A stretch of DNA of 44,153 nucleotides from the NCBI RefSeq assembly GCF_004305975.1, contig NZ_BHZI01000012.1, positions 1-44,153 on the forward strand. Reading direction: 5' to 3'. This DNA is from Streptomyces otsuchiensis (GTDB taxonomy: Bacteria; Actinomycetota; Actinomycetes; Streptomycetales; Streptomycetaceae). The position numbers and the translations under genes were made by a program. The notes beneath the pieces were generated by a model. The model saw nothing but the letters and a program-made list of their open reading frames with translations, had not been told where the DNA came from and made no database searches. This document shows, piece after piece, positions 5,928 through 44,104 of this stretch. The number at the start of each line of letters is the position of its first letter. Positions within the stretch are counted from its first letter, which is position 1.

Positions 5928-5969
5928 AGCCGCCTAAGGGAATCGAACCCTTGACCTACGCATTACGAG
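5928..5969 (-). other. Left attachment site: 3' half of tRNA-Thr(CGT)
   Basis: Read on the minus strand this contains an anticodon loop CTCGTAA, the 3' anticodon-stem strand, a variable region, a complete T-arm and the 3' acceptor strand of tRNA-Thr. The 5' half is missing: the sequence to the right (CACGG...) does not complete the anticodon stem. Compared with the intact gene at 44031-44104, 17 bp are identical (5953-5969 versus 44056-44072). The T-stem differs by paired changes, AAGGG/CCCTT here against GGGGG/CCCCC there. It is therefore an attachment-site duplicate, not a random remnant. Confidence 0.85.
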
Positions 5970-6089
5970 CACGGAAGCGATCGTGCCGGGCCGTTCTCCT
6001 GCTATGCACCAGATCCCGTTTTCCCAGATCAGAGCTCATGCCGTCGTCCCGCTGCTCACCTCTCATGCTGCACCGTCCAACGGCGTCCG

Positions 6090-6109
6090 CGCTCCCCTTG
6101 CGCTCCCCT
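6090..6109 (+). repeat. Putative integrase arm-type site, left copy
   Basis: CGCTCCCCTTGCGCTCCCCT, two tandem copies of a GCGCTCCCC-like unit. It lies 121 bp inside the left core, and an identical 20-mer occurs at 43911-43930 inside the right core, in the same orientation. In the excised circle the two would flank the core on either side, as arm-binding sites do in tyrosine-recombinase attP regions. Confidence 0.55.
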
Positions 6110-6389
6110 GGCCGCCGCCCATGAGGCGTCGGCGTCAGACGACGGTCTGCGTCTCGAGCACGAATCCGGCTTGTCGGCCTCGAACAAGACAGTTAGCCTT
6201 TTCCAACCTCCCGGGCTGGGCGACTAGGAGCTGTCCTGCCGATCTTGGGGGCCCGCCACGCCTGGCACGCACGATCACGGCGTTGCCGGATCTTGCGAGT
6301 GCGGACAAGTACGAGCTGCGATCTGGCGCCTTGCGATTGCACGCGCCAGAGGCCGCGGGCTGGACCTCATGTGAGATCACTCCGGGCAC

Positions 6390-6502
6390 CCAGTGTCGCA
6401 GATCATCCGCGAACGCACAGCTCAGTGGGGTGCAACCTCGGTTACCCCATGCCCGACGTCTGTCAGCCGTGGCCACCCTCGCACGGCTCGGAGACGGCCC
6501 AG
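6390..6502 (+). repeat. Diverged direct repeat, copy 1
   Basis: Aligns with 7404-7513 in the same orientation through shared blocks such as CCAGTGTCG, AGATCA, CCTCGGT, CTCGCACGGC and AGACGGCCCAG. The pair brackets the GIY-YIG gene. Confidence 0.6.
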
Positions 6503-6576
6503 GCGCCACGCAGTCTCAGTCCCGTTTGATCTTGCACAACTGTGACGATGTCTGCGCGACGTGCTAAGAACGCGTC

Positions 6577-7293
6577 ATGGCAGCAGACGAAGCCAACAAG
6601 GCGGGATACGTATACATCCTGGTCAATTCCTCACTTCCAGGACTCGTGAAAATCGGGTTGACTAGAGGAACGACAAAGCGACGCGCCGCCGAACTGTCCC
6701 ATCACACCGGAATTCCAACACCATTCGTGATTGCCTATGAGCAGTTGGTTGCCGACTGCTCAGCCGTAGAAAAGTCGCTGCACGAAAGATTTGCCAACTC
6801 TAGAGAGAGTGCACGCAGGGAATTCTTTCGCATAACCCCGAAAGAAGCCATTGACGGTCTCCAGAGGGCGGCACGATTCTCACCATTCGTCGATGACGAA
6901 GATGTGACACGAATCGACGTCCTGCCGATCTTTGATGCTCGCTGTCGCCGCTGGTTGCGAAGTGATCTCGTGGGTCTGAGCTACCTGCAAACACCCACAC
7001 TCTGCGCCTTGGAGACGACCACGCAGGAAGATTTCAGGTGTAGCAACTTTACAATTGAGCGCATGGATTTGGACTTTATTTGCTATCACGAAGACGGCCT
7101 ATTCAAGCCCGTTATTGAACCGGAAGAAAATGCACGCCGTCTGGTCGCGCTGGACAGCTATACTTTGATCATGTGCTTCGATTTCATCGACAGGGAGGTA
7201 GGGGGTTGGCTAGATGAGCGGTATCACAAGGATGGCGATGCCCCCTACTCGGCGCGAGCGTCCGACGCAACGTGGCAAATTCGGAGCAGTTGA
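6577..7293 (+). CDS. GIY-YIG (T5orf172-type) nuclease-domain protein
   Basis: A 238-aa protein. The N-terminal 100 residues match the T5orf172/MUG113 variant of GIY-YIG: GYVYILVNSSLPGLVKIGLT (GYVYI in the GIY position, VKIGLT in the YIG position), then an Arg-rich helix, a central AVEKSLHERF with the catalytic-type Glu/His region, and RREFFRI. The C-terminal 130 residues are not recognised. Codon use is clearly more AT-rich than in all neighbours (AAAA, TTT and ATT codons are frequent), indicating separate acquisition. No good ribosome-binding site is seen before ATG 6577. Such proteins occur in phages and mobile elements as nicking or accessory nucleases; a defence or anti-competitor role is inference. 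Confidence 0.7.
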   Translation: MAADEANKAGYVYILVNSSLPGLVKIGLTRGTTKRRAAELSHHTGIPTPFVIAYEQLVADCSAVEKSLHERFANSRESARREFFRITPKEAIDGLQRAARFSPFVDDEDVTRIDVLPIFDARCRRWLRSDLVGLSYLQTPTLCALETTTQEDFRCSNFTIERMDLDFICYHEDGLFKPVIEPEENARRLVALDSYTLIMCFDFIDREVGGWLDERYHKDGDAPYSARASDATWQIRSS

Positions 7294-7403
7294 CGACGCA
7301 TTTACCTTTTCTCAGTGAGAGTGATTTTTGCTGCTGGTTGAGGACGAGTGCGGCACGGGCTATGTACCGGCACGTTTGTCATTCGGGCGCAGGCGTAACC
7401 CCA

Positions 7404-7513
7404 CCAGTGTCGTAGATCACCTAGCCGACACAGGTGAGCTGGGTAGGGCCTCGGTCACCCCTTGCCGTCATCTGTCACCGTTGCCAGTCTCGCACGGCCC
7501 GCAGACGGCCCAG
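7404..7513 (+). repeat. Diverged direct repeat, copy 2
   Basis: Homologous to 6390-6502, with small indels. It ends at the same GACGGCCCAG block as copy 1 and runs directly into the inverted repeat at 7520. Confidence 0.6.
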
Positions 7514-7519
7514 AGCCTA

Positions 7520-7609
7520 TTGATGAGAAACCCTTCCAGTTCTCACTTTCAAGCTGCTGACCTGCGGCGACGATCTGGCAGTGATGAGAGCAGGAGAGTT
7601 TCTCATCAA
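7520..7609. repeat. 90-bp inverted-repeat structure
   Basis: TTGATGAGAAAC (7520-7531) is perfectly repeated in inverted form as GTTTCTCATCAA (7598-7609), with weaker pairing extending a few bases inward. It could be a tiny non-autonomous transposon, a large hairpin, or an operator pair. Confidence 0.5.
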
Positions 7610-8092: not shown

Positions 8093-8768
8093 TCAGTGCA
8101 GGAGTATGCGGTGGCGGAGGAGGTCGAATCCGGCGCGGCCGTGCATCTGCCTCATGATCCGTTTCGTTCGGGTGTTTACTCCTTCGGTGCGGCCGTTGTG
8201 GTAGGGCAGGGTGAAGCCGGCGTTCACGGCGGCGCGGTCGAGTTCGATGCCGTTGGCGAAGCTGTGCAGGTGAGGCAGGGCCGCGGCGCGGGCGGCACTG
8301 ATCCATTTGGTGAGTGTGCGGTCGTTGCCCTCGGCCGGGGCCAGCAGTGTGGCGAAGTCGCGCACGAGGTCGGAGAGTTCGGTCATCTCCGGGCATGCTG
8401 AGGTGATCTTCTCCAGCAGTGAGGTCTGTTTCGGCCGTAGGTTCTGCGGGGCGGTCAGGAGGAGCCGTGCGGCCCGGCGCGGCGTGGTCACGGGGCGGTC
8501 TCGTTCGGCGCGGCCCTGGTTGAGGTACTTGTGCAGGTTGTTGAGGCTGCCGGTGTAGCCGAGTTCCTTGATCTCGTGGAAGAGGTGAAGGACGGGGACG
8601 CCCGGTTGTTCGTTACGGCGTCGGTGCAGGTGTTCGCGATAGGGGTCGAGGAGCGAGGGTCGGTAGGCCGGTGCGATGCGCAGGCCGCTGGGCTCGGGCA
8701 TGCGCGCGTAGCGCTTGACGGTGTTCAGGGCCAGGCCGAGGCGGCGGGAGCCGGACTCAGCTGGGTTC
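8093..8768 (-). pseudogene. ISL3-family transposase, C-terminal remnant
   Basis: About 225 residues of the C-terminal half of an ISL3 transposase (DDE superfamily). The frame runs through an HTH-like GSRRLGLALNTVKRYAR, then a long helical region, then LDRAAVNAGFTLPYHNGRTEGVNTRTKRI, where the last catalytic acidic residue lies in NGRTEG. The frame continues upstream to about 8768 without a start codon, where it abuts the end of drmC. The N-terminal half, including the zinc ribbon and first catalytic Asp, is gone. The break lies 3 bp from the drmC stop, so IS activity probably set the left border of the DISARM segment. Confidence 0.75.
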
Positions 8769-8770: not shown

Positions 8771-9505
8771 TCAGGAGAGCTGTTCGTATATCGCGCCTTC
8801 TGCCGCTCGTAGCTCGCGCTCGACGGCTTCGGTGAGGTTCGGGTTATCGATGAGGACGCCGAACTCGACGTTGTTGTGCTCTGCGCTCCGGGAGAAGTTC
8901 GCGCTGGTCACCAGTAGGAGGTGGTGATCGATGGCAAGGAACTTGGCGTGATTGCGAACGTACCTGCCATCGAATTTCTTGGTTCGCCACACCTCGGCCG
9001 GAGCCAAGTGTGCGGCCACCTCTGAGGTCGACGGGGACCAGCGTTGTTCGCTGCCGTCGGCGGCTCGGGTGTCCATGTAGACGCGGACGGCAACGCCGTC
9101 GCGCTGGGCGGCCTCCTGCAGCGACGTCCAGAGCGCCGAGCTGCGTTGGAAGTTGAAGGTCGAGCAGGTGATCGCGTGCCGTGCGCTGTCCACGAGGCGG
9201 GTCACCGAGCTGGTGAGCGGACCACTCTGGGCGAGGTGTCCGGGCATGGTCCACAGCGGTGACAGCGCGGTGGGCAGTGCCCGTGCCCCCTCGATCGCCC
9301 GCAAGACCAACACCTGCTGGTACGTCGCTCCGGCGTCTCGTCCCACCGCCTCTAGCAGCCGCCGGATCTCTGCCCGGTGGCCGACCGCGACGACCTTGAG
9401 CGCGGCGGTCAGGGTGTCGCCGTCGGCCAGGCGGTCCGCGATGCCTTTGGCCTCGGTCCCGGTCAGGAGCTGACCGAGCTTCCGTGGCGCGCCCGCGTCA
9501 CTCAT
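8771..9505 (-). CDS. drmC: DISARM protein DrmC, phospholipase D-like
   Basis: A 244-aa protein with one phospholipase-D (HKD) motif in the C-terminal third: NHAKFLAIDHH at about residues 183-193, followed by LLVTSANFS. The N-terminal 90 residues are helical. Such single-motif proteins dimerise to form the active site in PLD nucleases. DrmC is one of the three core genes (drmABC) shared by DISARM classes. ATG 9505 overlaps the end of drmB by 8 nt, so the two are translationally coupled. It is the last gene of the operon and ends 3 bp from an ISL3 remnant. In published work drmC is the most dispensable DISARM gene; nothing here looks broken. Confidence 0.85.
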   Translation of the reverse strand: MSDAGAPRKLGQLLTGTEAKGIADRLADGDTLTAALKVVAVGHRAEIRRLLEAVGRDAGATYQQVLVLRAIEGARALPTALSPLWTMPGHLAQSGPLTSSVTRLVDSARHAITCSTFNFQRSSALWTSLQEAAQRDGVAVRVYMDTRAADGSEQRWSPSTSEVAAHLAPAEVWRTKKFDGRYVRNHAKFLAIDHHLLLVTSANFSRSAEHNNVEFGVLIDNPNLTEAVERELRAAEGAIYEQLS

Positions 9506-11531
9506 GGGGCTGGAAGAAGCCGAGGTCGCTGCCGGGTAGGTCGAGGAGGAACCGGCGGTCGAGAAAGCGGTTGGCGCGCTCGCAGGAGGTCTCCGAGGCC
9601 ATAACGCAGCAGTGGCAGGCGGCGCCGTGCAGGAAGTCCTCGGGCTTCTGCGGGGTGCGCTTGGAACAGATGGGGTCTGAGGAGCAGCGTGCGGCCTTGC
9701 GCAGCGCGCTGCGGACGACCTGTTGGAGGCGCGCTGGCTCGCTGAGCTGTACGAGGCCGCCAAGGGTGCCGTCGCTGTCCGAGGCGGTGGTGCAGATGAG
9801 GAGACCGGCAGCTGGGTCGCGGCCTTCGGCGGCGGGCCATGCGTAGAGGCGTTCGCTGAGGCTGGCGGCCGAGTATCCACAGGTCAGGGCGAGTTCGCGG
9901 ATGAGGATGTGTGCGAAGGTGTGGACGAGCCAGTAGCGTGGGGGCTTCAGGCGGCTGTCGGGATGGACCTGGTCGGCGGTCTCGGAGAAGCGGCGTTTGA
10001 AGTTTCTTTCGTGTGATGCGCGGTGGAGTTCCCAGAGGTCGGTGTCCAGGACGTGTTTCTCCCATGCGGCGACGGCGTTCTCGTCGAGCTGGAGGAAGAT
10101 GCCCTCGCCCCGGTCCTCGGTGGCCACGGTCCAGGCGGGTCGCGACGTACGAGTCAGGGGGGCCAAGCGACGCGGGAGGTCGCCGACTCGGTCCATGTCG
10201 TCGATGCGGGTGAAGCCGACCAGGGCGTTGACTTTGCGGAGGCGTTCGACCGCGAGTACGCGGGTGATCTCTGGTTGCAGGGCGTCGCCCCTGGCGCGGG
10301 TGGTTAGGGTGAGTCCGCTCTTGGGGTCCTCGACGCGCGTGCCGACGATGTCGCGCAGCAGGTAACGCCATTCGGGAACGAGAAGGTCGACTGGGTCCCA
10401 GTCGCGCAGCTTCTCTTCGTGTTCCTCGGGGGTGTCGGTCGGTGCGGAGGCAGCCTGCAGGACGTGTTCCAGGTCGTGGTCGGACAGGCCGGTGATGTCG
10501 ACGCCGCCGTCCATGCCGAGCAGGTCTCTGATCAGGTCGAGGTTATCGCGGTACTTGGCAAGCTTGTCGTCTAGCGCGGTGCGGATCCGGTCGGCCAGGT
10601 CGCTGGCCTCCTCCTCCTGGGACTCCGGCATGACGATGATCGACTGGGTGGCGGGGAACCACAGGTTGGAGGCGCCTACCAGCATCAGCTTGGTGTCCTT
10701 GCCGCAGCCCTTGGGCTCGAAGGCGTCCAGATGCGGGTGCCGTCCACGGCACTTTGGCAGCTTGTCCTTGCCTGCTTCGCCCTGGGCCTCGTTCATGGGG
10801 CGCTTCATGTCGCAGGACGCGCAGCGGATGACGGCCGAGGCGCCCTTGCCGGCGGTCCGGTCGGCCATCTTCAGGGCAGGCAGTTCTGCTTTGCTGCACG
10901 GCTGCCCGTGGTGCACCCACAGGTCGTACGGGAACTCGTCCAAGTGCCCGTCGACGCAGACCAGCAGATACCGAGCCGGGATCGCGGTACGTCGCATCGC
11001 TTTGCGAATGCGGGCGCCCGAGCGGCCCGTGCACTTGGCGTGCTCGAAGACGGCCAGGTCGGTGCGGAAGGGGTGCGTGTTGCGGTAGTCGAACTGAGCG
11101 AGCAATCCGAGCATGTCGCAACCCGTGCACCGCAACCATTGCGGGAAGACCCGGGAGGGCACTCCGAGGTCGTTGCCTTCGGCGGACCGGCTGTGCTTCT
11201 TCGGTTGCCAGGGATACGGCCGCAACTGCACGTCGGGGGAACGCAACATCATTCGGACCACATCACGGAGGCGCGGGGCATGGATCTGCGGGGGCGCTGA
11301 GTCGCGGCGCGTCCAGATGCGGTCCCAGTCGTCCAGGCCAGTGGGCATGATCGTGAACTGCGGCAGGTCCATGATCGCGCCGGGACCGTAGGTGTACAGC
11401 AGGGAGGAGGGGCGAGCCGAGCCGACCTTGGCGCGGTTGTGCTTGGTCGCCTTTTCTGCCTCCTGGTCCAGATCGCCCAGCGGGTCGACGGCGCGGGCGA
11501 CGTCGTAGACGAAGCGCGTCTCGTCACTCAC
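9498..11531 (-). CDS. drmB: DISARM protein DrmB (DUF1998)
   Basis: A 677-aa protein starting at GTG 11531, which overlaps the drmA stop by 4 nt (GTGA). It contains three cysteine clusters that look zinc-binding: CTGCDML near residue 143, CASCDMKRP with a following Cys pair near 240, and a C-terminal CHCCVMASETSCERANRFLDRRFLLDL. The last is the typical end of DUF1998 domains, which are often paired with or fused to helicases. DrmB partners DrmA; the DrmAB complex is the core of DISARM recognition of incoming unmethylated DNA. The length is normal and there are no frameshifts. Confidence 0.9.
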   Translation of the reverse strand: MSDETRFVYDVARAVDPLGDLDQEAEKATKHNRAKVGSARPSSLLYTYGPGAIMDLPQFTIMPTGLDDWDRIWTRRDSAPPQIHAPRLRDVVRMMLRSPDVQLRPYPWQPKKHSRSAEGNDLGVPSRVFPQWLRCTGCDMLGLLAQFDYRNTHPFRTDLAVFEHAKCTGRSGARIRKAMRRTAIPARYLLVCVDGHLDEFPYDLWVHHGQPCSKAELPALKMADRTAGKGASAVIRCASCDMKRPMNEAQGEAGKDKLPKCRGRHPHLDAFEPKGCGKDTKLMLVGASNLWFPATQSIIVMPESQEEEASDLADRIRTALDDKLAKYRDNLDLIRDLLGMDGGVDITGLSDHDLEHVLQAASAPTDTPEEHEEKLRDWDPVDLLVPEWRYLLRDIVGTRVEDPKSGLTLTTRARGDALQPEITRVLAVERLRKVNALVGFTRIDDMDRVGDLPRRLAPLTRTSRPAWTVATEDRGEGIFLQLDENAVAAWEKHVLDTDLWELHRASHERNFKRRFSETADQVHPDSRLKPPRYWLVHTFAHILIRELALTCGYSAASLSERLYAWPAAEGRDPAAGLLICTTASDSDGTLGGLVQLSEPARLQQVVRSALRKAARCSSDPICSKRTPQKPEDFLHGAACHCCVMASETSCERANRFLDRRFLLDLPGSDLGFFQPHE

Positions 11532-14500
11532 GAGTGGTCCTCCGGCATCTTCCACTGAGGGGCATGGTCGGGTGCGCGGTACACCAGCCGTTCCTTGATC
11601 GGGCTCACCAGGAGGTTGATCTCCGGCTGCACCTCGCGCATCGAGTTCGCCACGATGAACGGCGGAGCGTCGCGGGTGTCGCTGCCCGCCTTGGCGTTCT
11701 CCGCGCTCATCATCAGCGCGTCGTGCCGACCGTCGTCCAGAACCCTCTCGTACACCAGCGACTTGCGGTCCTCCATGAGGCTCTTGCGTCGCTTGCCCCA
11801 CTGGTCGAGCCGATTCTCCAGCCGCAGGCGGGCGCGGTTGGCCGCGTCCTCGTCACCGGCCCGCGCGATCCGGCGCACGAGGGCATCAAGGAGCTCACTG
11901 GCGAAGTGCTGCTCGGCCTCGATATGGGCTGCCCCACCCTCCGGGGACAGCCCTTGCCCGTGGCTCGCCTTTGCGGCCTGCAGGACACGGGCGGCGCTGA
12001 CCAGCACGCCGTCCAGGCCGCGCTCCAGGGAGGTCACCGAGAACGGGGTCACCGACAGGGCTTCCACCTGGGCGTAGAAGGTCTCGTGGTAGTGGCGGAA
12101 CTGCTCGAAGTGGGAGAGGTCCCTGGGCCGCGCCCAGTTCCCGAGCGCGACCACCAGACCGGGACGGTCCGCGGTCCGGCCGACACGGGAGGACGCCTGA
12201 ATGTACTCGGCGGTGTTCTTCGGTTGTCCGACGACGAGCATCAGGCCGAGGCGGGGCACGTCCACGCCCACCTGGAGCATGGAGGTGGCCAGGACCACGT
12301 CGTACGGATTGGCCTCACGCGTGGGCTCGGGCCTTTTCGCCTCCCGCAGCGCGCGCCGGTTGCCCTTGCCCGCGGTGGAGTCGAAGACCGGGTCGAACGC
12401 CGTCGCCATCTGGTCCAAGGTCGCGGTGATCTCCGCGCTGGCCACGCGCGAGGTCAGCTCGGCGACGTGCAGCGAACCGTAGTCGGTGCCGGTGCGGCGG
12501 GGAAGCTTCGACCAGGGGCGGCCCTTGGCGAGCGCGGTCTGGATATCGTCGCTCATGTATCGCGCCATGCCCGCGAGTTCACGGGTGGCGCTGAAGTAGC
12601 CGACCAGGCTCAGGTATGGGTCGGCCACGCGGCCGGAGCGGTCGAGAAGCAGTTGCCCGCCGGCCAGGAGCACCTCGGCGACCCGGATCTCCGCCGTGGT
12701 CAAGCGCACCCCGGTCGTGCTGATCCCGACGTACCGGCGTCCCGGGTTCTTCTCCGAGACTGGGATCTCCTTGGAGAAGTAGGTGTTCCCGGCGTCCAGG
12801 ACCTGCGGCGGGAAGATGGTGACGTCGCGCCCGTACAGCGCACGCACCTGGTCCGACGCGTTGCGGGCGGTGGCCGTGGAGGCGACAAGCAGCGGACGCA
12901 CCGGGCGCCCGTCCTTCGTCCGCCAGTCGGTCATCACGTCGATGGCCACCTCGAACAGGCCCACCGTCGTGCCGAGTGCCCCGGTGATCAGGTGCAACTC
13001 GTCCTGGATGACCAGGTCCGGGGGCCGCAGCCGCGTGGCACGGTGAACGGAGGCCGCCGGCCAGCCGTCCTTCTTGGGATGCCTGCTGCCATCCTTGATG
13101 TCGCACTGCTGATAGTCGGGATGCACGAAGCCGTGCCGGTCGCAGCGCCGCGAGACATGCCCGAACAGCGAGGCCGCCTCGCCCTCCCGCGCCAGGCGGG
13201 CGAACTTGTCCACGGTGGCGATGACGAATGCCGGCGCGAGCCGGTAGATCTCCTCGTCCACCGTGAGCACCGGCAGGCCGTCCGGGACCGCACCGCCGTC
13301 GGCGAACGGGCAGTCGGCCAGCTCATCCCCGCAGTACACATACACCCGGCGTAGCGCGGGCTCCGTCCGCACATCGCGCGCTTCGACCCGCGTCCCGCAC
13401 CACGGGCAGCGCTGGATCTGCAGCACCGTCAGCCGATGGCCACGGCCCCCGTGGGCTTTCTGCAACTGCTCGGCGGCCTCGTCGTACCGCTTCGGGCTCA
13501 CATCGGTGCCGACCCACAGCCCGATCCGGAACGGCTCATCCCCCCACGTCGCCACGTCATCGCGCCGCGCCAGCTCCGCCGCGCACACCAAGGCGGTGGC
13601 GCGCTGGAACTGCTGGGCGGTGAGCAGGCGCAGCGTGTACCGCATGAGGACGGCGACCCCGGCCTGCCCGTCCAGCGGACCGTCGAAGGCATCCACGATG
13701 CCTTGGCGGCGACGGATCGCAAACGTGTAGGCGGCCAGACCCAGATACGCTTCCGTCTTGCCACCACCGGTCGGGAAGAACAGCAGCTGCGCCTTGGCCA
13801 GATCCCCCGAGCGCTTCTCGGCCGCCGGGTCGGACAGCAACGGCAACTGCATGAGCACAAAGGCGAGCTGGAAAGTACGCCAGGAATGCGCCCGATCCTT
13901 CTTGTCCTCGAGAATCGCCTCGCGAGCCTCGTCGATGCTCTCCTCCGGCCGACTCGCCCGCCGCTCCGCGACCTGGGACTGCACACGCTGATCGGCCATC
14001 ACCCGGTTCATGAACCGGAAGCAGCGCAACGCCTCCTCGTCCCCTAGGAGATGCTCCAGACCCTCCTCAAGCTGGCGTTGCACCCGGCGCGCCTCGGTGA
14101 CTGCGTCCAGACCCTCGGACCGCAGATGCTCGGGGAGTGCCTTGGCCCGCTGCTCCTCGCCGTTCAGCCAGGCCGTGTAGCCAGCGACGATTGGCTCAAG
14201 ACCCGTACGCAGTTCGTCGGGCGACACCTCCTGGAGCTTGCGCATGTCCAGCAGGGCCGCCCTGATCTCCTCGGCGGCCGTCTGCGGCGTCTCACTCACC
14301 GGCAGCCATGTCGTCCAGACCTCACTGGCCTTGCGCGCTCCCTTGGCTACCTCCCAGTCCACCGAGCAGGTCCGGCCATGGGCGAACTCCAGACGGTTAC
14401 GGTACTGAAGCCGCAGCCGCCGCAGCTCGTCGTCCGGCTCCTCACGCGTGTCCAGGAGCACGTCATTGACCGGCAGGAACGCCTCAGTGCCACCGGCCGA

Positions 14501-29198: not shown

Positions 29199-29199
29199 C

Positions 29200-29255: not shown

Positions 29256-29316
29256 CCGGGCGCCCTTTCCTTCTCTTCCTCTCCTGCCTTCTTCGTGTTC
29301 CTAGGACGGTTCTGCC

Positions 29317-30780: not shown

Positions 30781-30830
30781 GACGCGCCCTTCCCGTCCGC
30801 CCGCTGGCCACTACCCGAAGGACCCGCCGC

Positions 30831-31241
30831 ATGCCGTCCGAGCTGCACCACGCCACCGAGGCGCTGGACTTCCACCGGGCCCTGACCGTTCCCGCAGGGC
30901 CGGTGGCCGCCACCCGCACCGAGCTGGACGCCCTCCACGCCCACCTCCTCGCGCTCTACGCCCTCCTGGACGCTCACACCACCGCCCCGGTCGAAGGCGG
31001 CCACCTGCGGGCGAGCCGGGTGCGGATCTGGCAGGCCGCCGACCACCTCCACGCCGCCTACCACGCCGCACCCCACCCCGACGGTCGACCGCCCACCCGC
31101 GAAGCCTGCCGTGCCCGTCTGCCCGAAGGCGCCCCCGAACTCACCATCTGCCAAAGCCACCTGGCCACCGCCGCCCACGTCCGGCGCGACCACACCCCGG
31201 CCGACCTCCACGACCCGTTCACCGGCCTGACCCGCTACTGA
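30831..31241 (+). CDS. DUF6238-like small protein
   Basis: A 136-aa soluble, His/Ala-rich, all-helical protein; ATG 30831 has AAGGA nine bases upstream. It lies between the SCO6880 gene and the VirB4-like ATPase, the place where DUF6238 proteins occur in Streptomyces conjugation clusters. There are no catalytic motifs. The length and helical, HEPN-like spacing (FHRAL ... LYALLDAH ... AADHLHAAYHA) suggest a small adaptor. Function unknown. Confidence 0.65.
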   Translation: MPSELHHATEALDFHRALTVPAGPVAATRTELDALHAHLLALYALLDAHTTAPVEGGHLRASRVRIWQAADHLHAAYHAAPHPDGRPPTREACRARLPEGAPELTICQSHLATAAHVRRDHTPADLHDPFTGLTRY

Positions 31242-31259
31242 CCACCAGGACACCCACTC

Positions 31260-32816: not shown

Positions 32817-32873
32817 CGCGGAAACTCCCAGCACTCCATTCCTCTCTTCATTCTTTCGATGAGGCGGTATCTC

Positions 32874-35286: not shown

Positions 35287-35876
35287 GTGTCGCGGACGCC
35301 TGGAAGGTCTACGAGACGCAGGCCCAAGCTCGCTACCGGGACGTCGGCGAACGCCTGCCAGGGCTGCTGCGACAGGGGCATGCCGCGCTACGGGACGCCC
35401 GCTCCGAGGACGAGCCCGCTGTCCTTCGTCAGCTCATCAGCCTGTACGGGCTGCATCAGATCTGGCTGCGCCGGGTCGGCGAACCGACTCTCGCCCGGAT
35501 TGCGGCTGACCGGGGCCTTTCGCTGGCCGACAACGCCGGCGACCCTGCGCTTCTTGCTGCCGCGGCCTGGAACCTCTCGTGTGTACTCACGACATCCGGT
35601 GACGTGTCCGACAGCTACGAGCTGGCCAAGCAGACTATCGCCCAGTGCAAGCCGGACGACGGCTCCTCCCCGGAGCACTGGTCGGCGTACGGCGCACTGC
35701 ACCTGCAAGGTGCCGTCGCCGCCGTCCGCGCCGCCAAGGCGCCGCTTGGCTGGGACCTCTACCGAGGGGCCCACGCCGCCGCCGAGCGAGTCGGCGGCGA
35801 TCTGAACCACTGGCACACCTGCTTCGGCCCGACGAACGTGGCGATGCACGAGGTCCACCTCATGGCCGAAGAGGGT
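35287..35876 (+). pseudogene. XRE-family regulator remnant (TPR domain only)
   Basis: Frame 3 from 35289 encodes about 195 residues of a helical TPR-like domain (ETQAQARYRDVGERLPGLL, WNLSCVLTTSGDVSDSYELA, HWHTCFGPTNVAMHEVHLMAEEGD). It is characteristic of Streptomyces XRE-type regulators whose N-terminal HTH is missing here. It has no start codon of its own: the left edge is the truncated MoxR gene and the right edge the integrase fragment, so it is an internal gene slice created by two deletions. Confidence 0.65.
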
Positions 35877-36246
35877 GACGCAGGTCGGAGACCTTTCCGG
35901 GCGCCTCATCGCCGAAGCCGGCCTGCCGCCCATCCGCCTCCACGACCTCCGCCACGGCGCCGCAACTCTCATGCTCGCCGCCGACGTCGACATCAAGGTC
36001 GTCTCCGACACACTCGGCCACAGCGACTCCCGCATCACCCGGGACATCTACCAGTCCGTCCTCGACGACCTCGCCCGCGAAGCCGCCGAAGCCGTCGTCA
36101 AACTCGTCCCCCGCGCGCCTCAAGCCATTCGCTCTGCCATCGAACAACGCGCTGCCCGGCAGACGGTCTCCGGACTCAAGGCAGCCGAAGAATGCACCTG
36201 TTCGTGCACCTGCGGAGCGACAGGGCGGGAAGTGCCTGCGGCGTAG
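35875..36246 (+). pseudogene. Tyrosine recombinase (integrase), C-terminal fragment
   Basis: About 120 residues holding the catalytic end of a phage/ICE-type integrase: RLHDLRHGAAT (the HxLRH box), VSDTLGHSDSRITRDIYQSV (LGH box with the nucleophile Tyr). The N-terminal arm-binding and core-binding domains and the first catalytic Arg are missing. The sequence begins abruptly at VTQVGDLSGRLIAEAGLPP where it meets the TPR remnant. Actinomycete pSAM2-type integrases have this form. Since no other integrase is visible, this may be what is left of the element's own enzyme or of a second element. Confidence 0.8.
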
Positions 36247-37144: not shown

Positions 37145-38842
37145 ATGATGAGTGAGCTGCAACTGTGGGATGACAACCCGACGACGGTCGACCTTCTGGG
37201 GTTCACCTCGATCGTTGACACCGTCGCGGCTGCTCTGCAGTCCCGCTCCCTGGACCCCGTGACCATCGGCATCAACGCTCCCTGGGGCGGAGGGAAGTCC
37301 ACCGTTCTGGGCCTGCTGCAGGCCGAGCTGAGCCGCCAGAGCGGCTACCGCGTCATTCGGCTCGATCCGTGGGAGTTTGACGACCAGTTTGATGTGCGCG
37401 GCGCCGTCATCGGTGAAGTCCTACAGGACCTCCTCACGACGTACCCGGATGAAGGACTCGATGACCGGGTCAAAGACCTGTTGGAGCGCATCAGTTGGTC
37501 ACGCGTCGCCTCCAGCATGGCCCGTGGCAGGCTGGTAGCGCAGACCGAAGAGCTCGTCAAAGCGCTCACGCCCCGATCGAAGGAGAACGCCAAGAGCCTG
37601 GCGGGCTTTCGCAGTGAGTTCGCCAAGCTGCTCCAGGACCTCGCTCCGCTGCAGCGGCTGGTCGTACTGGTAGACGACCTTGACCGATGCCTACCGGACG
37701 CAGTGATGGCCACGTTGGAGGCCATCAAGCTGTTCTTGTCGGTTGAGAAGGTGGCCTTCGTCCTGGCGGCTGATCAGGAGATGGTGCGGGAGTCCATCGC
37801 CGTCAGCCTCGACGCCACAGGCCGCGGCGAACAGTTTGCGCAGCGCTACCTGGAAAAAATCGTCCAACTGCCCCTGTCGCTCCCGCGTATCAGTGCGGAC
37901 GAGGCCGCCGCGTTCATCACCCTCCTGCTGTCCGAACAACGCTGTCCGCAGCAAGAGCAGTACACACAGTTGATCGGACACGCGCAACAGCGACGTGCTC
38001 AGGGCCTGTCACCCGTCCTGGCCGACATGCAGAGCCTGCCGTGGGAACCCGATGCCGACACCGTAGGGCTGGCCAGCCGCCTCGCCACCGGCCTGTCAGC
38101 TCACCGCTCGGGAAGTCCCCGCAGCATCAAGCGGTTCCTCAATGCGTGGGCGCTGCGTACCAGGATCGCCGAGCGGCACGGCATCGCCATCGAGGCCTCG
38201 GTGATCGCCAAGCTCATGCTGCTGGAAGACAGCCACAGCAAGGACTTCGAGACGCTTGTTGGACTCCGGGACGCCCAGCGCAGCGAACTGCTGCAGCGCT
38301 GGCAGGCTTGGGGGCGTGGCGAGGAGCGTGACAAGCCCGGCGAGGTCAGCGAAATGAGCAAGGAGTGGGCCGCGTCTGACCCCGACCTCATCAACGCCCC
38401 GATCGGCCCGTATCTGAGCCTGGCCGCGTCACTGGTGAGTCTCACGGCCGCGGCCTCCCTGACACAGCAGCAGCTCTCCTGGGCGAGCGACCTGGCCAGC
38501 GCTTCGGACCCGCACCGCAGTGATGCCCAGACACAGATCGTGGCTGCCCCCGTCACCGACCAGCAAGCAGTTGCCCAGGCACTCATTCAGCGGGCACGCC
38601 GGGAGTCAGAAACCGATCACCTGGTTCACTCCCTCGTCCATATAGCCATCCACACAGTCGAGCTGCGGGCGCTGATCGCGCAGGGTCTGTGGGAGGTACG
38701 CAAGTACCTCCTGCCCGGCGCCGTCGTCGACATCGACACCAGCGGCGTCGAAGAGCTGCGGGCGCTGCTTCCCCAGCTGGCCGAGGCCACCGACATCGAG
38801 CCGGCGGTGCAGCAAGCGGCACAGATGGCACTGGGGCGCTGA
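37145..38842 (+). CDS. qatA: Qat defence protein QatA, KAP-family P-loop ATPase
   Basis: A 565-aa KAP NTPase. Walker A APWGGGKST is near residue 46, a conserved RLDPWEFDD near 76, and Walker B VVLVDDLDRCLPD near 176, the hallmark of KAP enzymes. It is followed by a helical lid and a long C-terminal helical region. No transmembrane insertion is obvious. QatA is the ATPase of the four-gene Qat anti-phage system (QatABCD). ATG 37145 or 37148 could be the start. The stop overlaps the next ATG (TGATG), the first of three overlapping junctions. Confidence 0.88.
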   Translation: MMSELQLWDDNPTTVDLLGFTSIVDTVAAALQSRSLDPVTIGINAPWGGGKSTVLGLLQAELSRQSGYRVIRLDPWEFDDQFDVRGAVIGEVLQDLLTTYPDEGLDDRVKDLLERISWSRVASSMARGRLVAQTEELVKALTPRSKENAKSLAGFRSEFAKLLQDLAPLQRLVVLVDDLDRCLPDAVMATLEAIKLFLSVEKVAFVLAADQEMVRESIAVSLDATGRGEQFAQRYLEKIVQLPLSLPRISADEAAAFITLLLSEQRCPQQEQYTQLIGHAQQRRAQGLSPVLADMQSLPWEPDADTVGLASRLATGLSAHRSGSPRSIKRFLNAWALRTRIAERHGIAIEASVIAKLMLLEDSHSKDFETLVGLRDAQRSELLQRWQAWGRGEERDKPGEVSEMSKEWAASDPDLINAPIGPYLSLAASLVSLTAAASLTQQQLSWASDLASASDPHRSDAQTQIVAAPVTDQQAVAQALIQRARRESETDHLVHSLVHIAIHTVELRALIAQGLWEVRKYLLPGAVVDIDTSGVEELRALLPQLAEATDIEPAVQQAAQMALGR

Positions 38843-39681
38843 TGGGTACCTCCGGCTCCTACGGCGGCAGCGGTACGTCCGACTGGCAGGAAGCCCATGA
38901 CGCCTTTGACGCCCTGCCCAGTTCTGCGCCGGCCGGCTCCGGCCCCGGGCATCCTCCCGATCCCGCGCAGGACCAGCAGCAGCCGCTCGACAATCTCCTC
39001 GACGCTCTCGGCGCGGCCCTGCAGAAGGACGACGCGGACCGCGGAAAGCCATCGGCCGCCGGGTACCCGCTCTCCGCCCTGCTTGCCTCTCCCCGAGGCA
39101 GCGGGGGAGGGGGCGCCGGCGCAGGAACCCGAACACCCACGGGCAGAGCCGGTGCAGGTTCACGACGGCAGGTCGTCAAAGGCTCCGCCCGTGGGGCCGC
39201 TGCACTTGCCGGCGCCTACGCGCTGCGCAGCGGTGACGCAGCCCGACTTCAGGAACTCGGCCTCGATCTCGCCGAGCTGCGAAGCATGGGCCCACGGGCA
39301 CAGATCTCCCGCATCCTGCAGGCGGTGCTCGGCGACGCAGGCCACCCCGACGAAGCCGCCCTGAGGAAAGCCGCCACCAGATGGGTCAAGGCCGTACTCC
39401 TCGATCCCCTGCCGCCCGCACCACAGGAGGGCATGCGAGGACTCGTCACCGAGTGGATTTACGAGCTCTCCGTGGTCGAACTCGGCTCTCAGAAGGCCCG
39501 GGGGAACCTGACCGCGCAGGAGGCCATCCGTAAACAACGATGGCTGCGCTCCTGGCTAGAGCGTCGGCTCAAAGGCCTTCTCGTTCCCGATACGCGAGGC
39601 ATGACTGTACAGGAATTCACCGCTACAGCAGCCAAGGTGACCGGGGAGGCACTGCGCATGCTGCGCGCACGACGCTCATGA
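38842..39681 (+). CDS. qatB: Qat defence protein QatB
   Basis: A 279-aa protein starting at ATG 38842, which overlaps the qatA stop by one base. The N-terminal 100 residues are disordered and Gly/Ser/Pro-rich (MGTSGSYGGSGTSDW...). The C-terminal 170 residues are helical (SARGAAALAGAYALRSGDAARLQELG...; LVTEWIYELSVVELGS). QatB is the uncharacterised, partner-type component of Qat and has no known catalytic motif. Assignment rests on position between a KAP ATPase and a QueC-like gene, plus the typical Gly/Ser-rich start. Confidence 0.8.
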   Translation: MGTSGSYGGSGTSDWQEAHDAFDALPSSAPAGSGPGHPPDPAQDQQQPLDNLLDALGAALQKDDADRGKPSAAGYPLSALLASPRGSGGGGAGAGTRTPTGRAGAGSRRQVVKGSARGAAALAGAYALRSGDAARLQELGLDLAELRSMGPRAQISRILQAVLGDAGHPDEAALRKAATRWVKAVLLDPLPPAPQEGMRGLVTEWIYELSVVELGSQKARGNLTAQEAIRKQRWLRSWLERRLKGLLVPDTRGMTVQEFTATAAKVTGEALRMLRARRS

Positions 39682-40949
39682 CCACTGCCATCGAAGTGCT
39701 CCCGCACGACGCCGATCAGCACGAACCCTCTGCCAGGCCCGTGCGCTGGGCCCGTACGCGCGACGACGGCCCGACCGTCGAAGTCACCGGCACCCTCGGG
39801 TGGGATCTGGACCTGATCGGGCGGGCCCCTGTGACCGCGGCAGATCTGGCCCGTATCGCGGCATCGGCATATCTCGCCGATCGCGCGGTCCGCCGTCCCC
39901 TCACGTTCGTCAGGACAATCGAGCTCACCGCCCACACGGTGAACCCCGAACCCTGGCGAGGTACTTGCGGCCAACTCGTCGAAGAGCTGCTGCGCTGGCT
40001 CACCGGTGACCTATGGCACCTGCACGCCGTACCCGCCCCGCCCACAGACCGGACACTGACTCCCCTGGAACCGGCCGACGACGTCATGCTCCTGAGCGGC
40101 GGCCTCGACTCTCTGTGCGGCGCCGTCGACCACCTGCCGGACGGCACCCAACGGATCTACCTGAGCCACTACGACGGCAGCACCGCAGTCCGCAGCGCAC
40201 AGACCAAAGCCAGCTCGTGGCTGCAGAGTCGCGCCTCCCAGCCCCTGCGGCATCTCAGCACCAAGATCTGTCAGACCGGCCCCTCCGCGGAGCCCTCCTC
40301 ACGCAGCCGAAGCCTGCTGTTCGCTGCCCTAGCTGCCGCGACCGCAGCCAGCGCCGCCAGCCCGCAGGTCACGGTGCCCGAGAACGGATTCACCAGCATC
40401 AACCCACCATTCACCCCAGCACGCGGCGGCGCCCTGTCTACCCGGTCCACTCATCCCGGAACCTTCAGCCGCCTCAATAGCCTTCTGGCTAGCGCAGACA
40501 TCTCCGTCCAGATCGCCAACCCCTACCTACACCGAACCAAAGGCGAGCTCCTCGCACGCGCCCACGACCGCGCCGGAGACACGCTGCTCGCCGCGGCCGC
40601 CGAGACCCTCTCCTGCGGCAAACTCGACGGGGCCCGCTATCCGGGCGGTAACGCGAACCTCAACTGCGGCCTGTGCGTGGCCTGCCTGGTACGCCGCGGG
40701 TCCTTCACCACCGGCCCCTATCGCGACCACACCGCCTACCTCGTTGACCGCCTAGACGGCACATCGCACCAGCTGCTGCTCACCAACCGCCGCAGAGATG
40801 TTCACGACGTCCAGCAAGCCATCCTCAACGGCATCGAGGACACCGATATCCTTGCCGTCGGCGATCTGCCCCCCGAGACCGACTTCGACGCCGTCGTGGA
40901 CCTGTGCCAGCGAGGCCTCCAGGAACTGAGCCGTGTCCCACTCCCCTGA
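39678..40949 (+). CDS. qatC: Qat defence protein QatC, QueC-like
   Basis: A 423-aa protein of the QueC (7-cyano-7-deazaguanine synthase) superfamily. The PP-loop ATP-pyrophosphatase signature LLSGGLDSLCGAV is at residue about 137. A zinc site near residues 315-335 has LSCGKLD followed by CGLCVACLV. The first 130 residues are an extra N-terminal domain not found in biosynthetic QueC. QueC makes the nitrile of preQ0 in an ATP-dependent step; in Qat the analogous chemistry may modify a protein or nucleotide. ATG 39678 overlaps the qatB stop (ATGA). Confidence 0.88.
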   Translation: MTTAIEVLPHDADQHEPSARPVRWARTRDDGPTVEVTGTLGWDLDLIGRAPVTAADLARIAASAYLADRAVRRPLTFVRTIELTAHTVNPEPWRGTCGQLVEELLRWLTGDLWHLHAVPAPPTDRTLTPLEPADDVMLLSGGLDSLCGAVDHLPDGTQRIYLSHYDGSTAVRSAQTKASSWLQSRASQPLRHLSTKICQTGPSAEPSSRSRSLLFAALAAATAASAASPQVTVPENGFTSINPPFTPARGGALSTRSTHPGTFSRLNSLLASADISVQIANPYLHRTKGELLARAHDRAGDTLLAAAAETLSCGKLDGARYPGGNANLNCGLCVACLVRRGSFTTGPYRDHTAYLVDRLDGTSHQLLLTNRRRDVHDVQQAILNGIEDTDILAVGDLPPETDFDAVVDLCQRGLQELSRVPLP

Positions 40950-41697
40950 CGAACTACCTGAGCTAGACTGCCACGCCCACATCGCCCCCGACGTCACCGA
41001 CTCCCAGATCGACGCACTCCACGGGGCTGTCGTGCTCGCTATGACCCGCACGCCGGCAGAGACCACCCACGCCCTGCGACGCCGGGACACCACTCTGGTC
41101 TGGGGCACTGGCGTGCACCCCGCGGTACCGGCCGCGCTCAAGGCCTTCAGCCCGCGCCAGTTCCGCACCACCCTGAAGCAGACTTGCCTCATCGGCGAAG
41201 TCGGACTCGACCGCCGCGGCAGCCTCGACACGCAGCGCTCCGTGCTCACCGAGATCCTCGACGCTGCGCGCGATGAACCGGTCGTCCTCTCCCTGCACAG
41301 CAGCGGGCGCACCGGACCTCTGATGGACCTGCTCACCAGCCGCCCGCATCCGGGCATCATCCTGCACTGGTTCCTGGGCAGCCCCGCCGAGCAGAAGCAG
41401 GCCCTTGACCTGGGCGCCTACTTCTCGGTAAACGCCGCCATGCCAGACGACGCCCTGACCGCGTTCCCCCTGGACCGTCTGCTTCCCGAGACCGACTTCC
41501 CCGCCAGCAGACGGACCACTCGAGCGACCCGCCCCGGTGTCATCGAGCCGATCGAACAACGGCTAGCCCAACTTCACGGCACGACACCCCAGCTGATCAG
41601 GCGCCGCTTCTGGCAGAACCTGCGTGAACTGACCACTCGGACGCAGGTGCTGGACCGTCTGCCGGAGCCCATCGCGGACTGGGCACTGGAAGCCTGA
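40933..41697 (+). CDS. qatD: Qat defence protein QatD, TatD-family DNase
   Basis: A 254-aa metal-dependent hydrolase of the TatD family. Metal ligands appear in order: DCHAHI (residues 12-17), IGEVGLD (about 88), LHSSGRT (about 121), HWFLGS (about 146) and ETDFP (about 186). All standard TatD positions are present. GTG 40933 lies 17 nt inside qatC. TatD enzymes are 3'-5' exonucleases; QatD is the nuclease-like effector candidate of the Qat system. It is the last gene of the operon, ending 55 bp before the convergent pentapeptide gene. Confidence 0.88.
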   Translation: MSHSPDELPELDCHAHIAPDVTDSQIDALHGAVVLAMTRTPAETTHALRRRDTTLVWGTGVHPAVPAALKAFSPRQFRTTLKQTCLIGEVGLDRRGSLDTQRSVLTEILDAARDEPVVLSLHSSGRTGPLMDLLTSRPHPGIILHWFLGSPAEQKQALDLGAYFSVNAAMPDDALTAFPLDRLLPETDFPASRRTTRATRPGVIEPIEQRLAQLHGTTPQLIRRRFWQNLRELTTRTQVLDRLPEPIADWALEA

Positions 41698-42717: not shown

Positions 42718-43101
42718 TCAGCCCCAGCCAGTAACTGCACGCGCTAGCCTGTCAACAGGCCGAGCGCATCGGCCCAAGCCGGGGCTCGCCCATGAACGGC
42801 CCCACACGGCAAAGGTGCCCGGGTCATCCCGGACCCGTTCACGGGTGAACTGGAGAGTGGCCACGCGGACACCGTGTTCCCGGCGGATGTCGTGAAGGTT
42901 GAAGTCGGTGAAGGACTCCTCGCCCGGAGGCCATCGCGCGAGGTACCCCTCCGCCAAGCGTTCGAAGGTTCGCTCGGCGCAACGGCAGAGCGTCCCCGCC
43001 GGCGTTCCCTTCGGTCCCGAAGGCCCCACCGGGAGCGCGCACCCCGGACGGAACCGGTAGTCAGCGGTGAGCCGACGGCAGCACCCGTATTTCAGTTCCA
43101 T
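42718..43101 (-). CDS. Small hypothetical protein
   Basis: A 127-aa reading frame from ATG 43101. The middle (GYLARWPPGEESFTDFNLHDIRREHGVRVATLQFTRERVRDDP, read in parts) has good actinomycete codon bias, but the ends are less convincing. Four Cys in the first 45 residues (CC, PGC, LCRC) might bind a metal. It begins 38 bp downstream of the next minus-strand gene, so the two may be co-transcribed. Not recognised. Confidence 0.4.
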   Translation of the reverse strand: MELKYGCCRRLTADYRFRPGCALPVGPSGPKGTPAGTLCRCAERTFERLAEGYLARWPPGEESFTDFNLHDIRREHGVRVATLQFTRERVRDDPGTFAVWGRSWASPGLGRCARPVDRLARAVTGWG

Positions 43102-43139
43102 GTCGTTCCCGCTCCGGTTAGCAGCAGCCTCTGGCGGGT

Positions 43140-43775
43140 CTACGCGGAGCCATCAGCACGCAAGCCGCGAGCGAGCTCCGCATGACGGCGCATGACCGGC
43201 AGCGTGCCGGCATCCACTTTCTCCTGTCCGTGAATCTCCCCGCACGGGCAGACACTCCAGCCGTCAGCCTCGATCCGGTCTGCAATGGCGTCCACCAAGT
43301 CCGCCAATTCGTCGAGGACGCCGACCGGGATGTCGGCGGCGCCGTCGATGTGGCGACGGACCAGTGCGGCGCCGATCTCGGTGGCGAGGTCCAGGAGGTG
43401 TGCCGCGGCGGGGCCGTCGCCGTTGAGTCCGGCGTACTTGCCTGCTTGCGAGGCGGCGGTGACCAGGTGGCCGAGGTGCTTGACGGAGACGCTGACCATC
43501 CGGTCGTCGATGCGCACCGGCCGTACCGCGTGCGGCGGGGTTGTCCCCGGACCGTCCTCGCAGGCGCCGATGATGACGTCGGAGACCGCTTCGGGAGTGA
43601 CCAGCGCGACGGCCTCGCTCTCGTCCATGCCGATCCGCTGCGCCGCCGTGTGGACGAGGTGCATCGCGACGCCTCGCACGGCCTCCGTCTCTACTTCGAC
43701 CCCGTGGGTCAGCAGGAGGGCGGTCGCCTGGGTGACCAGGGTCCGGAAGGGGAGTGAGGCTATGGCTTCTACCAC
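43140..43775 (-). CDS. Hypothetical protein of the element's right end
   Basis: A 211-aa helical protein from GTG 43775. There are no transmembrane segments. A CPCGEIHG motif near residue 178 resembles a zinc knuckle seen in some element-encoded proteins. The rest is Ala/Val/Asp-rich helix with a central VSVSVKHLGHLVTAASQAGKYAG. A 17-bp perfect palindrome (43800-43816) lies 25 bp upstream and may be its operator. Not recognised beyond this; its place beside the att site suggests an element-maintenance role. Confidence 0.65.
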   Translation of the reverse strand: MVEAIASLPFRTLVTQATALLLTHGVEVETEAVRGVAMHLVHTAAQRIGMDESEAVALVTPEAVSDVIIGACEDGPGTTPPHAVRPVRIDDRMVSVSVKHLGHLVTAASQAGKYAGLNGDGPAAAHLLDLATEIGAALVRRHIDGAADIPVGVLDELADLVDAIADRIEADGWSVCPCGEIHGQEKVDAGTLPVMRRHAELARGLRADGSA

Positions 43776-43799
43776 GACCGCAAGCCTACGGGGTCCATG

Positions 43800-43816
43800 T
43801 TGTCGGAGTCCGACAA
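43800..43816. promoter_or_regulatory. Perfect palindrome, candidate operator
   Basis: TTGTCGGA-G-TCCGACAA, 8-bp arms around one base, 25 bp upstream of the GTG at 43775. The size fits a dimeric repressor site; it would overlap or follow the promoter of that gene. Confidence 0.5.
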
Positions 43817-43910
43817 GCGGCGCGCGAATGGTCCTCGGACGAAGCGAGGACGCGGCGCGCGCGTTAGCGGTGGGGTGTGCGCACCCTCCTGCACCCGCGC
43901 TGGTCCGATG

Positions 43911-43930
43911 CGCTCCCCTTGCGCTCCCCT
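43911..43930 (+). repeat. Putative integrase arm-type site, right copy
   Basis: The same 20-mer as at 6090-6109, here 125 bp inside the right core and in the same orientation. Confidence 0.55.
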
Positions 43931-43990
43931 TGGATTTCGCGGCATGGACGGGACCGGCCCGATAAGTGGCCGTCAGCCCCGAAACATGAG

Positions 43991-44025
43991 AAAGGCCAGG
44001 TCAGACGGAGTCTGACCTGGCCTTT
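43991..44025 (-). terminator. tRNA-Thr terminator (element side)
   Basis: A perfect 16-bp stem (43991-44006 with 44010-44025) and a GGA loop. The arms are identical to the terminator at 5887-5921. It lies directly 3' of the intact tRNA. Confidence 0.88.
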
Positions 44026-44030
44026 GGGGG

Positions 44031-44104
44031 AGCCGCCTGGGGGAGTCGAACCCCCGACCTACGCATTACGAGTGCGTCGCTCTGGCCGACTGAGCTAAGG
44101 CGGC
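44031..44104 (-). tRNA. tRNA-Thr (CGT anticodon)
   Basis: A 74-nt cloverleaf on the minus strand. The acceptor strand GCCGCCT (5' end at 44104) pairs with AGGCGGC, with discriminator T at 44031. The D-arm has AGCTCAGTCGG. The anticodon stem ACGCA/TGCGT encloses loop CTCGTAA with anticodon CGT (44070-44068), reading ACG threonine codons. The T-arm is GGGGGTTCGACTCCCCC. CCA is not encoded. The 3' half from the anticodon loop onward is probably supplied by the integrated element, because the other att copy carries a different T-stem. Confidence 0.95.

What the first reader, a model, noticed from the sequence alone, without database searches (positions are those of the whole stretch)
5928..44104. 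38-kb element bounded by tRNA-Thr anticodon-loop attachment sites
A 17-bp identical core (5953-5969 and 44056-44072) ends exactly at the 5' edge of the 7-nt anticodon loop, and the tRNA is intact at one end only. This pins the crossover to the anticodon loop with the anticodon stem as the integrase inverted repeat. It gives precise element ends, within which two full defence systems lie.
Basis: partly seen in the sequence, partly recalled or inferred. Interest (0 to 1): 0.7.

Follow-up and report, generated by a model that had tools for sequence, protein, structure and literature searches.

The report
Stranded defence island in tRNA gene
A 38-kb block of DNA in a Streptomyces-like bacterium carries two antiphage defence systems and sits in a tRNA gene whose second half it has replaced, apparently with a copy from another lineage; it has lost most of the enzyme it would need to move out again, and it is an ordinary kind of genomic island with unusually clear ends.

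Summary
The 17-bp core is at 5953-5969 and 44056-44072, the only intact tRNA, tRNA-Thr(CGT), is at 44029-44104 on the minus strand, and homology runs on through the tRNA 3' end and terminator. The window is one whole contig ending 49 bp past the tRNA, so the native right flank is missing.
The block is a tRNA-integrated island with conjugation-like genes and DISARM and Qat cargo. Its integrase is only a C-terminal relic (112 of 541 positions of a relative), so self-excision is unlikely.
The two tRNA 3' halves differ at five positions, including two compensatory T-stem pairs. The left remnant carries the host clade's allele: the rebuilt pre-insertion tRNA is identical to that of four relatives. 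The intact tRNA's T-stem is in 0 of 46 sampled relatives but in other Streptomyces and actinobacteria. So the element most likely brought a foreign 3' half. The crossover is bracketed to 17 bp, not to the loop alone; the stem as integrase inverted repeat is not supported on the element side. Flank adjacency was not seen in any relative checked; the DNA left of 5928 may itself be accessory. New member of a known kind.

The parts
5928..5969 (-). Displaced 3' half of the original tRNA-Thr(CGT), T-stem AAGGG/CCCTT (left end of the element; crossover within 5953-5969)
5884..5921 (-). Terminator hairpin of the displaced half, 95% identical to the one at 43988-44025
   Evidence: D7
5970..6001 (-). 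Element-side arm next to the core; the motif GGCACGATCGCTNNCGNNCTCGTAATG is shared with displaced tRNA-Thr halves of two other genomes (G025, G021) among the 247 loci held
6577..7293 (+). T5orf172-domain protein (PADLOC candidate family PDC-S57)
8093..8701 (-). ISL3-family transposase fragment (matches profile positions 110-240 of 240)
8771..9505 (-). DISARM drmC (PLD domain)
9498..11531 (-). DISARM drmB
11528..15286 (-). DISARM drmA helicase
15283..19329 (-). DISARM drmMI methylase
19326..22556 (-). DISARM drmD SNF2-like helicase
22929..24137 (+). DDE transposase (DDE_Tnp_1 plus DDE_Tnp_1-associated domain)
24242..25000 (-). Stand-alone N6/N4 DNA methyltransferase
25546..33933 (+). Conjugation-like gene cluster: NlpC/P60 protein, SCO6881 family (weak TrbL match), SCO6880 family, protein weakly matching VirB4-type ATPases (below the curated cut-offs); no relaxase or coupling protein among the ORFs scanned
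34363..35805 (+). AAA ATPase reading frame, apparently joined out of frame to a following coding frame
35875..36246 (+). C-terminal relic of a tyrosine integrase (aa 421-532 of a 541-aa relative)
37145..38842 (+). QatA
38842..39681 (+). ORF in QatB position, no profile match
39678..40949 (+). QatC
40933..41697 (+). QatD
43140..43775 (-). Gene shared with related tRNA-Thr elements (56% identical homologue near the integrase gene beside the same tRNA in G014)
43988..44025 (-). Terminator hairpin carried with the element's tRNA 3' half
44029..44104 (-). Intact tRNA-Thr(CGT), read as a chimera: resident 5' half (44073-44104) and element-borne 3' half with T-stem GGGGG/CCCCC (crossover within 44056-44072)
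44105..44153 (-). Sequence upstream of the tRNA, similar to that in G137; the contig ends here

Best explanation
A mobile element with its own tyrosine integrase recombined its attP with tRNA-Thr(CGT) within the 17 bp that start at the anticodon loop. Integration cut the resident gene in two. The resident 5' half and upstream region stayed at the right end and joined a 3' half and terminator carried by the element, rebuilding a tRNA; the resident's own 3' half and terminator now lie 38,103 bp away at the left end. The element's 3' half came from a host lineage with a different T arm, so the present tRNA is a chimera. Afterwards the element decayed: the integrase lost its N-terminal three quarters, including the first conserved arginine, and the transfer genes look incomplete, leaving a stranded island that keeps DISARM, Qat and a methyltransferase. 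Shown by sequence: ends, homology, allele identity, truncation. Inferred: the recombination event, the foreign source, the loss of mobility.
For: Unique core pair and 86-bp end homology. The rebuilt pre-insertion tRNA is a valid tRNA and identical over 74 nt to tRNA-Thr(CGT) of G036, G137, G369 and G180, from each of which the intact window tRNA differs at 5 positions. An rpoB tree places the host with G137, G369, G061 and G180 at 100/99 support; their T-stems are AAGGG (three) or GAGGG (G061). T-stem GGGGG is in 0 of 46 sampled relatives' intact CGT tRNAs but in 30 stretches of GTDB contigs, 23 intact tRNAs and 7 displaced halves. The break lies at or next to the loop edge at other remnants. 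Homologues of the integrase relic lie beside tRNA-Thr(CGT) in G014, G003 and G137. The closest other recombinases in the host assembly are 37% and 30% identical.
Against: No empty-site relative with the same left flank was found. The left-flank genes are rare or lie elsewhere in relatives, so the outer side of 5928 may be an older accreted island rather than the native chromosome. G061, inside the host's clade, differs from the rebuilt tRNA by 2 and from the intact one by 3, so the T arm does drift within the clade. CB02923 and S. monomycini, close to G036, also carry GGGGG, so the allele can change between near relatives and the donor is not identified. The assembly is a 752-contig draft and the right flank is missing.
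Confidence: 0.83

Rival explanations
1. Tandem accretion (compatible with most of the main reading): the half tRNA at 5928 is the boundary between two stacked elements. The DNA left of it is an older island, the AAGGG half was carried by that island, and the native chromosome lies further left, outside the contig.
For: The PIG-L and cyclase genes each matched 2 of 41 genomes, one of the two being the host itself (at E 1e-30, at E 1e-40). The left flank 2300-5927 matched 11 of 392 genus genomes including the host at E 1e-100, by its hydrolase or HAD gene or, in one second hit, an upstream stretch; in the six near-complete genomes among them the matches lie within about 0.6 Mb of a chromosome end. 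No gene was shared by 4 or more of 20 relatives in the 20 kb past this tRNA (coarse ORF caller), and at most by 6 of 29 stretches, not all of them tRNA loci, in a looser repeat. Accretion at Streptomyces tRNA sites is published (PMC9513070, passages read).
Against: AAGGG is the allele of sister species, as expected for the native half. Only two cores exist in the window.
Confidence: 0.35
2. In-place drift: the element carried the same T arm, and the intact tRNA later mutated from AAGGG to GGGGG.
For: Two base-pair swaps and one T-loop change separate the halves; G061 shows that one T-stem pair changed within the host's clade.
Against: It needs two compensatory double changes plus the T-loop base found with GGGGG elsewhere. 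Of 29 remnant/intact pairs compared, 20 are identical (one of these, L147, is probably a contig-end copy of the intact tRNA); of the 8 others besides the window, 7 show 1-3 differences without a paired T-stem change and one has an apparent indel.
Confidence: 0.12
3. Chance tRNA duplication or an assembly join, with no integrated element.
For: Fragmented draft assembly; the left-flank context differs from G137.
Against: Exact break at the loop edge as at other sites, element-side motif shared with two other remnants, related integrase relic pointing towards the tRNA as in related elements.
Confidence: 0.05

Closest known systems
tRNA-gene islands of the anticodon-centred class (Islander class A, PMC4383910, passages read; Williams 2002, recalled, not held)
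   Same: Displaced 3' tDNA fragment and restored tRNA mark the ends; crossover site centred on the anticodon loop. Islander counts 2083 such islands.
   Different: Here the two 3' halves differ by compensatory T-stem changes, which brackets the crossover on both sides.
Streptomyces ICE at tRNA-Thr in strains RLB1-8 and RLB3-5, and AICE family 13 at a tRNA-Thr gene (PMC9513070, passages and section 14 read)
   Same: Same genus (the host's genus is inferred from rpoB) and a tRNA-Thr target; the ICE has 93-nt terminal repeats; decayed AICEs with truncated integrases are described there.
   Different: The window's element has 86-bp, 86% identical end repeats, an integrase relic, and DISARM and Qat cargo. 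Which tRNA-Thr isoacceptor is meant was not seen, and sequences were not compared.
AICEs with pSE211-type integrases inserted in a tRNA-Thr gene (PMC3218068, passages read)
   Same: Tyrosine integrase, tRNA-Thr target.
   Different: The window has conjugation-like genes of another type; whether the relic is pSE211-type was not tested.
Streptomyces aureofaciens phage mu1/6 (tRNA-Thr TGT attachment site; recalled, search did not find the paper)
   Same: tRNA-Thr 3'-half core.
   Different: A phage, other isoacceptor; not checked here.

Membership tests
tRNA-gene integrated genomic island (anticodon-centred class) | Intact tRNA at one end and displaced 3' fragment at the other | tested here: met
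tRNA-gene integrated genomic island (anticodon-centred class) | Identity starts at the anticodon loop | tested here: met
   break at or next to the same base in other remnants
tRNA-gene integrated genomic island (anticodon-centred class) | Integrase gene within the ends | tested here: inconclusive
   only a 123-aa C-terminal relic
tRNA-gene integrated genomic island (anticodon-centred class) | Empty site in a close relative | tested here: inconclusive
   empty-site tRNA allele found but not the flank adjacency
Functional ICE | Integrase, relaxase, coupling protein and VirB4 all present (criteria as in PMC9513070) | tested here: not met
   weak VirB4-type matches only, integrase truncated, no relaxase or coupling protein among 38 ORFs scanned with Pfam; at most a defective ICE
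AICE | FtsK/TraB-type translocase and Rep | tested here: not met
   none among 38 ORFs scanned with Pfam
DISARM, drmD/drmMI type | drmA, drmB, drmC with methylase and drmD | tested here: met
   component roles from PMC9142583 passages
Qat (QatABCD) | QatA, QatB, QatC, QatD in order (recalled) | tested here: inconclusive
   A, C and D matched; the ORF in B position had no PADLOC match

The most novel reading that the evidence does not exclude
The element carried out a natural module swap in a host tRNA. Because recombination at the anticodon loop moves the whole self-paired T arm while the acceptor strand must still match the resident 5' half, elements of this class can replace a host tRNA's T arm with a foreign one. 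Here tRNA-Thr(CGT) now carries the T arm of another lineage, and its original 3' half lies 38 kb away as a record of the swap.
Probability: 0.72. Interest if true: 0.4.

Novelty: new member of a known kind. Interest (0 to 1): 0.3.

Why it matters
The mismatch between the two 3' halves gives a two-sided bracket on a natural crossover (17 bp) and a direction for the event without any experiment, and it suggests an island reshaping a host tRNA. The island also illustrates how defence genes become stranded when an integrase decays. None of this changes the accepted picture of tRNA-integrated elements.

Tried and rejected
An inversion around the tRNA was considered, because a TAP-like hydrolase lies 5' of tRNA-Thr(CGT) in many relatives and one also lies left of 5928. 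The window's copy is only about 32-38% identical to the copies beside the tRNA and 88% identical to a gene on another contig of G137, so it is a paralogue and the inversion idea was dropped.

A third att site (tandem elements inside the 38 kb) was looked for; there are only two cores even with 3 mismatches.

A conserved gene downstream of the tRNA was sought in 20 and then 29 stretches with a crude ORF caller; none was general (one search gave nothing because of name parsing). A first rpoB tree used wrong reading frames and was discarded. The rebuilt set lost the Saccharopolyspora row because the motif was not found; 27 of 28 rows were used; one search ended in an error over that missing outgroup and one search gave the tree. 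In one search the printed T-stem pair counts used a wrong offset and were not used. Searches scored only 40 of 1161, 1439 and 975 candidates, so their negatives are weak and are not used as evidence of absence.

L147 proved identical to the intact tRNA locus of its own genome over all 95 comparable bases, so it is probably a contig-end copy and not a displaced half; I say so wherever it was counted. I lowered the main confidence from 0.85 to 0.83 and the module-swap odds from 0.75 to 0.72, and raised drift from 0.10 to 0.12, because G061 shows a T-stem change within the host's clade, which my first text did not tell.

Literature: searches showed me no report of a T-arm swap by an integrated element; I saw listings only for most of them, of one open library, and only two were aimed at it.
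Full report
What was claimed and what is there. The 17-bp core is present exactly at 5953-5969 and 44056-44072 and nowhere else in the window with up to three mismatches; 0 of 100 shuffled sequences gave two hits. One tRNA is found, tRNA-Thr(CGT) at 44029-44104 on the minus strand. The left copy is not an isolated 17-mer: 5884-5969 matches 43988-44072 at 86% and includes the 3' half of the tRNA and its terminator hairpin. Read on the tRNA strand, identity begins at the first base of the anticodon loop and stops 17 bases later where the T arm begins. The distance between the two cores is 38,103 bp. The window is the whole of contig C12 in a 752-contig assembly, and only 49 bp lie right of the tRNA. 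Those 49 bp resemble the sequence upstream of the same tRNA in G137 (87% over 161 bp including the tRNA; shown).

Which half is original. The two 3' halves differ at five tRNA positions (50, 51, 60, 65, 66): two compensatory T-stem pairs and one T-loop base. Joining the right-end 5' half to the left-end 3' half gives a valid tRNA-Thr(CGT) that is identical over 74 nt to the tRNA of G036, G137, G369 and G180; the intact window tRNA differs from each of these at five positions. G061 differs from the rebuilt one by two and from the intact one by three. An rpoB tree of 27 rows places the host with G137 (96% identity), and these two with G369, G061 and G180 (100/99); their intact T-stems are AAGGG (three) or GAGGG (G061). 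The host's rpoB is 89-90% identical to named Streptomyces in the set, from which I infer the genus. The GGGGG stem of the intact window tRNA is in 0 of 46 intact CGT tRNAs of relatives, one per genome. An exact scan of GTDB contigs found the GGGGG form in 30 stretches, 23 with an intact tRNA and 7 with a displaced half, in Streptomyces and a few other actinobacteria. Of the 17 GGGGG-bearing Streptomyces in the tree, 14 lie on the other side of the (midpoint) root and three (TP-A0874, S. monomycini, CB02923) on the host's side. Those rows were picked because they hold the allele (in S. xiaopingdaonensis only a displaced half was seen), so the tree says nothing on frequency. The simplest reading is that the left half is the host's own and the right half came with the element.

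Control for the swap. I compared 29 displaced halves with the intact tRNA-Thr(CGT) of the same genome; of 38, eight TGT-type halves and one without a fetched intact partner were left out. Twenty show no difference, but one of these (L147) is probably a contig-end copy of the intact tRNA, which leaves 19 of 28. Besides the window, seven show one to three differences with no paired T-stem change and one has an apparent indel. Only the window shows paired T-stem changes.

Where the crossover is. In one search's listing (61 genomes; the listing was cut) I counted by eye 41 partial hits that start at or before query base 46 and end before base 113, setting aside four opposite-strand matches of the terminator hairpin to itself. 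Twenty-two end exactly at base 88, the 5' edge of the loop, 40 end between 86 and 96, and one ends at 74 at a contig edge. I fetched 37 of the 40 plus the contig-edge one; the three not fetched are the window's own, one at a contig start in G034 and one in G051. This choice favours hits that break near the loop. In the 37 plus the window (L147 included), each of the 17 core positions is kept in at least 37 of 38, except loop base 3, which is C in 30 of 38 (the TGT isoacceptor has T there). In the 37 with enough upstream sequence, the two bases before the core match the tRNA in only 5 and 10 of 37, although position -3 matches in 30 of 37. So the left limit is general, and the right limit is given by the T-arm mismatch in this window alone. 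The crossover lies in the loop, 3' stem strand or variable region; the loop is likely from published classes (PMC4383910, passages read) but is not pinned here. The idea that the anticodon stem is the integrase inverted repeat holds for the tRNA by geometry. On the element side, matches to the stem averaged 2.05 of 5 at the right offset and 0.62 to 2.41 at 30 other offsets; over 8 bases, 2.89 against 1.27 to 3.08. That is not evidence for it.

What the element is. Inside the ends lie drmC, drmB, drmA, drmMI and drmD, a separate N6/N4 methyltransferase, a conjugation-like cluster with SCO6880 and SCO6881 family proteins and a protein weakly matching VirB4-type ATPases, QatA, C and D with an unmatched ORF in the B position, a transposase and a transposase fragment, and a gene at 43140-43775. 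The last has a 56% identical homologue about 200 bp from a 78% identical integrase gene beside the same tRNA in G014. In the window about 6.9 kb containing Qat and a pentapeptide-repeat gene separate the two.

Can it move. The integrase is a relic: homology covers residues 421-532 of the 541-residue G014 protein, and no other part of it is found in the window. The retained part holds the HDLRH box and the presumed tyrosine (residues 441 and 476 on in the G014 protein); the RGLRRGE box with the first conserved arginine, at residue 325, is missing (the roles of these boxes are recalled). The nearest other recombinases in the assembly are 37% and 30% identical. G137 also has only a 105-residue open frame around its integrase match beside its tRNA. 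No relaxase or coupling protein turned up among the 38 different ORFs scanned with Pfam. By the published scheme this would be at most a defective ICE (PMC9513070, passages and section 14 read).

What remains open. The left-flank hydrolase has its best relative, 86% at DNA level, on a G137 contig other than that of the tRNA, and the same is true in G180, G061 and G369; the remaining genomes with a match were not followed up. None of the six proteins called left of 5928 (one of them probably spurious) matches the 41 kb fetched past G137's tRNA at E 1e-10. PIG-L and cyclase genes each matched 2 of 41 genomes, one of the two being the host itself. Since tRNA sites in Streptomyces are known to accumulate elements, the DNA left of 5928 may be native to the species or an older element. 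I keep that as the main rival.

Verdict. A well-marked tRNA-Thr island with defence cargo, very probably stranded, ordinary in kind. The uncommon part is that it appears to have given its host a foreign tRNA T arm.

Noticed in passing
34363-36246: Mosaic of truncated frames: an AAA ATPase start, a second coding frame, then the integrase C-terminus, suggesting two deletion joints.
   Followed up: partly
38842-39681: ORF in the QatB position with no match in PADLOC, Pfam or NCBIfam.
   Followed up: partly
8093-8701: ISL3 transposase fragment directly beside drmC.
   Followed up: no
22929-24137: DDE transposase between drmD and the stand-alone methyltransferase.
   Followed up: no
L139, L140, L141, L142 (G022:C151): Four displaced CGT-type halves within about 20 kb, on the same contig as and near a tRNA-Thr(TGT): stacked insertions.
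   Followed up: no
L135, L137, L143, L144, L146, L149, L162, L163: Displaced halves of the TGT isoacceptor break at the same loop edge, so related elements seem to use both tRNA-Thr genes.
   Followed up: partly
L120 (G137:C44), 6886-7185: The host's closest relative in the rpoB tree also has a truncated integrase frame beside tRNA-Thr(CGT), and the hydrolase seen 5' of this tRNA in other relatives was not found there.
   Followed up: partly
L147 and L168 (G034): Contig-end copies of one tRNA locus can pass for displaced halves in draft genomes.
   Followed up: yes
2404-3175: The minus strand probably encodes a MerR-type regulator (Pfam match inside the longer ORF 2404-4929); my automatic plus-strand call at 2482-3348 is likely spurious.
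   Followed up: partly
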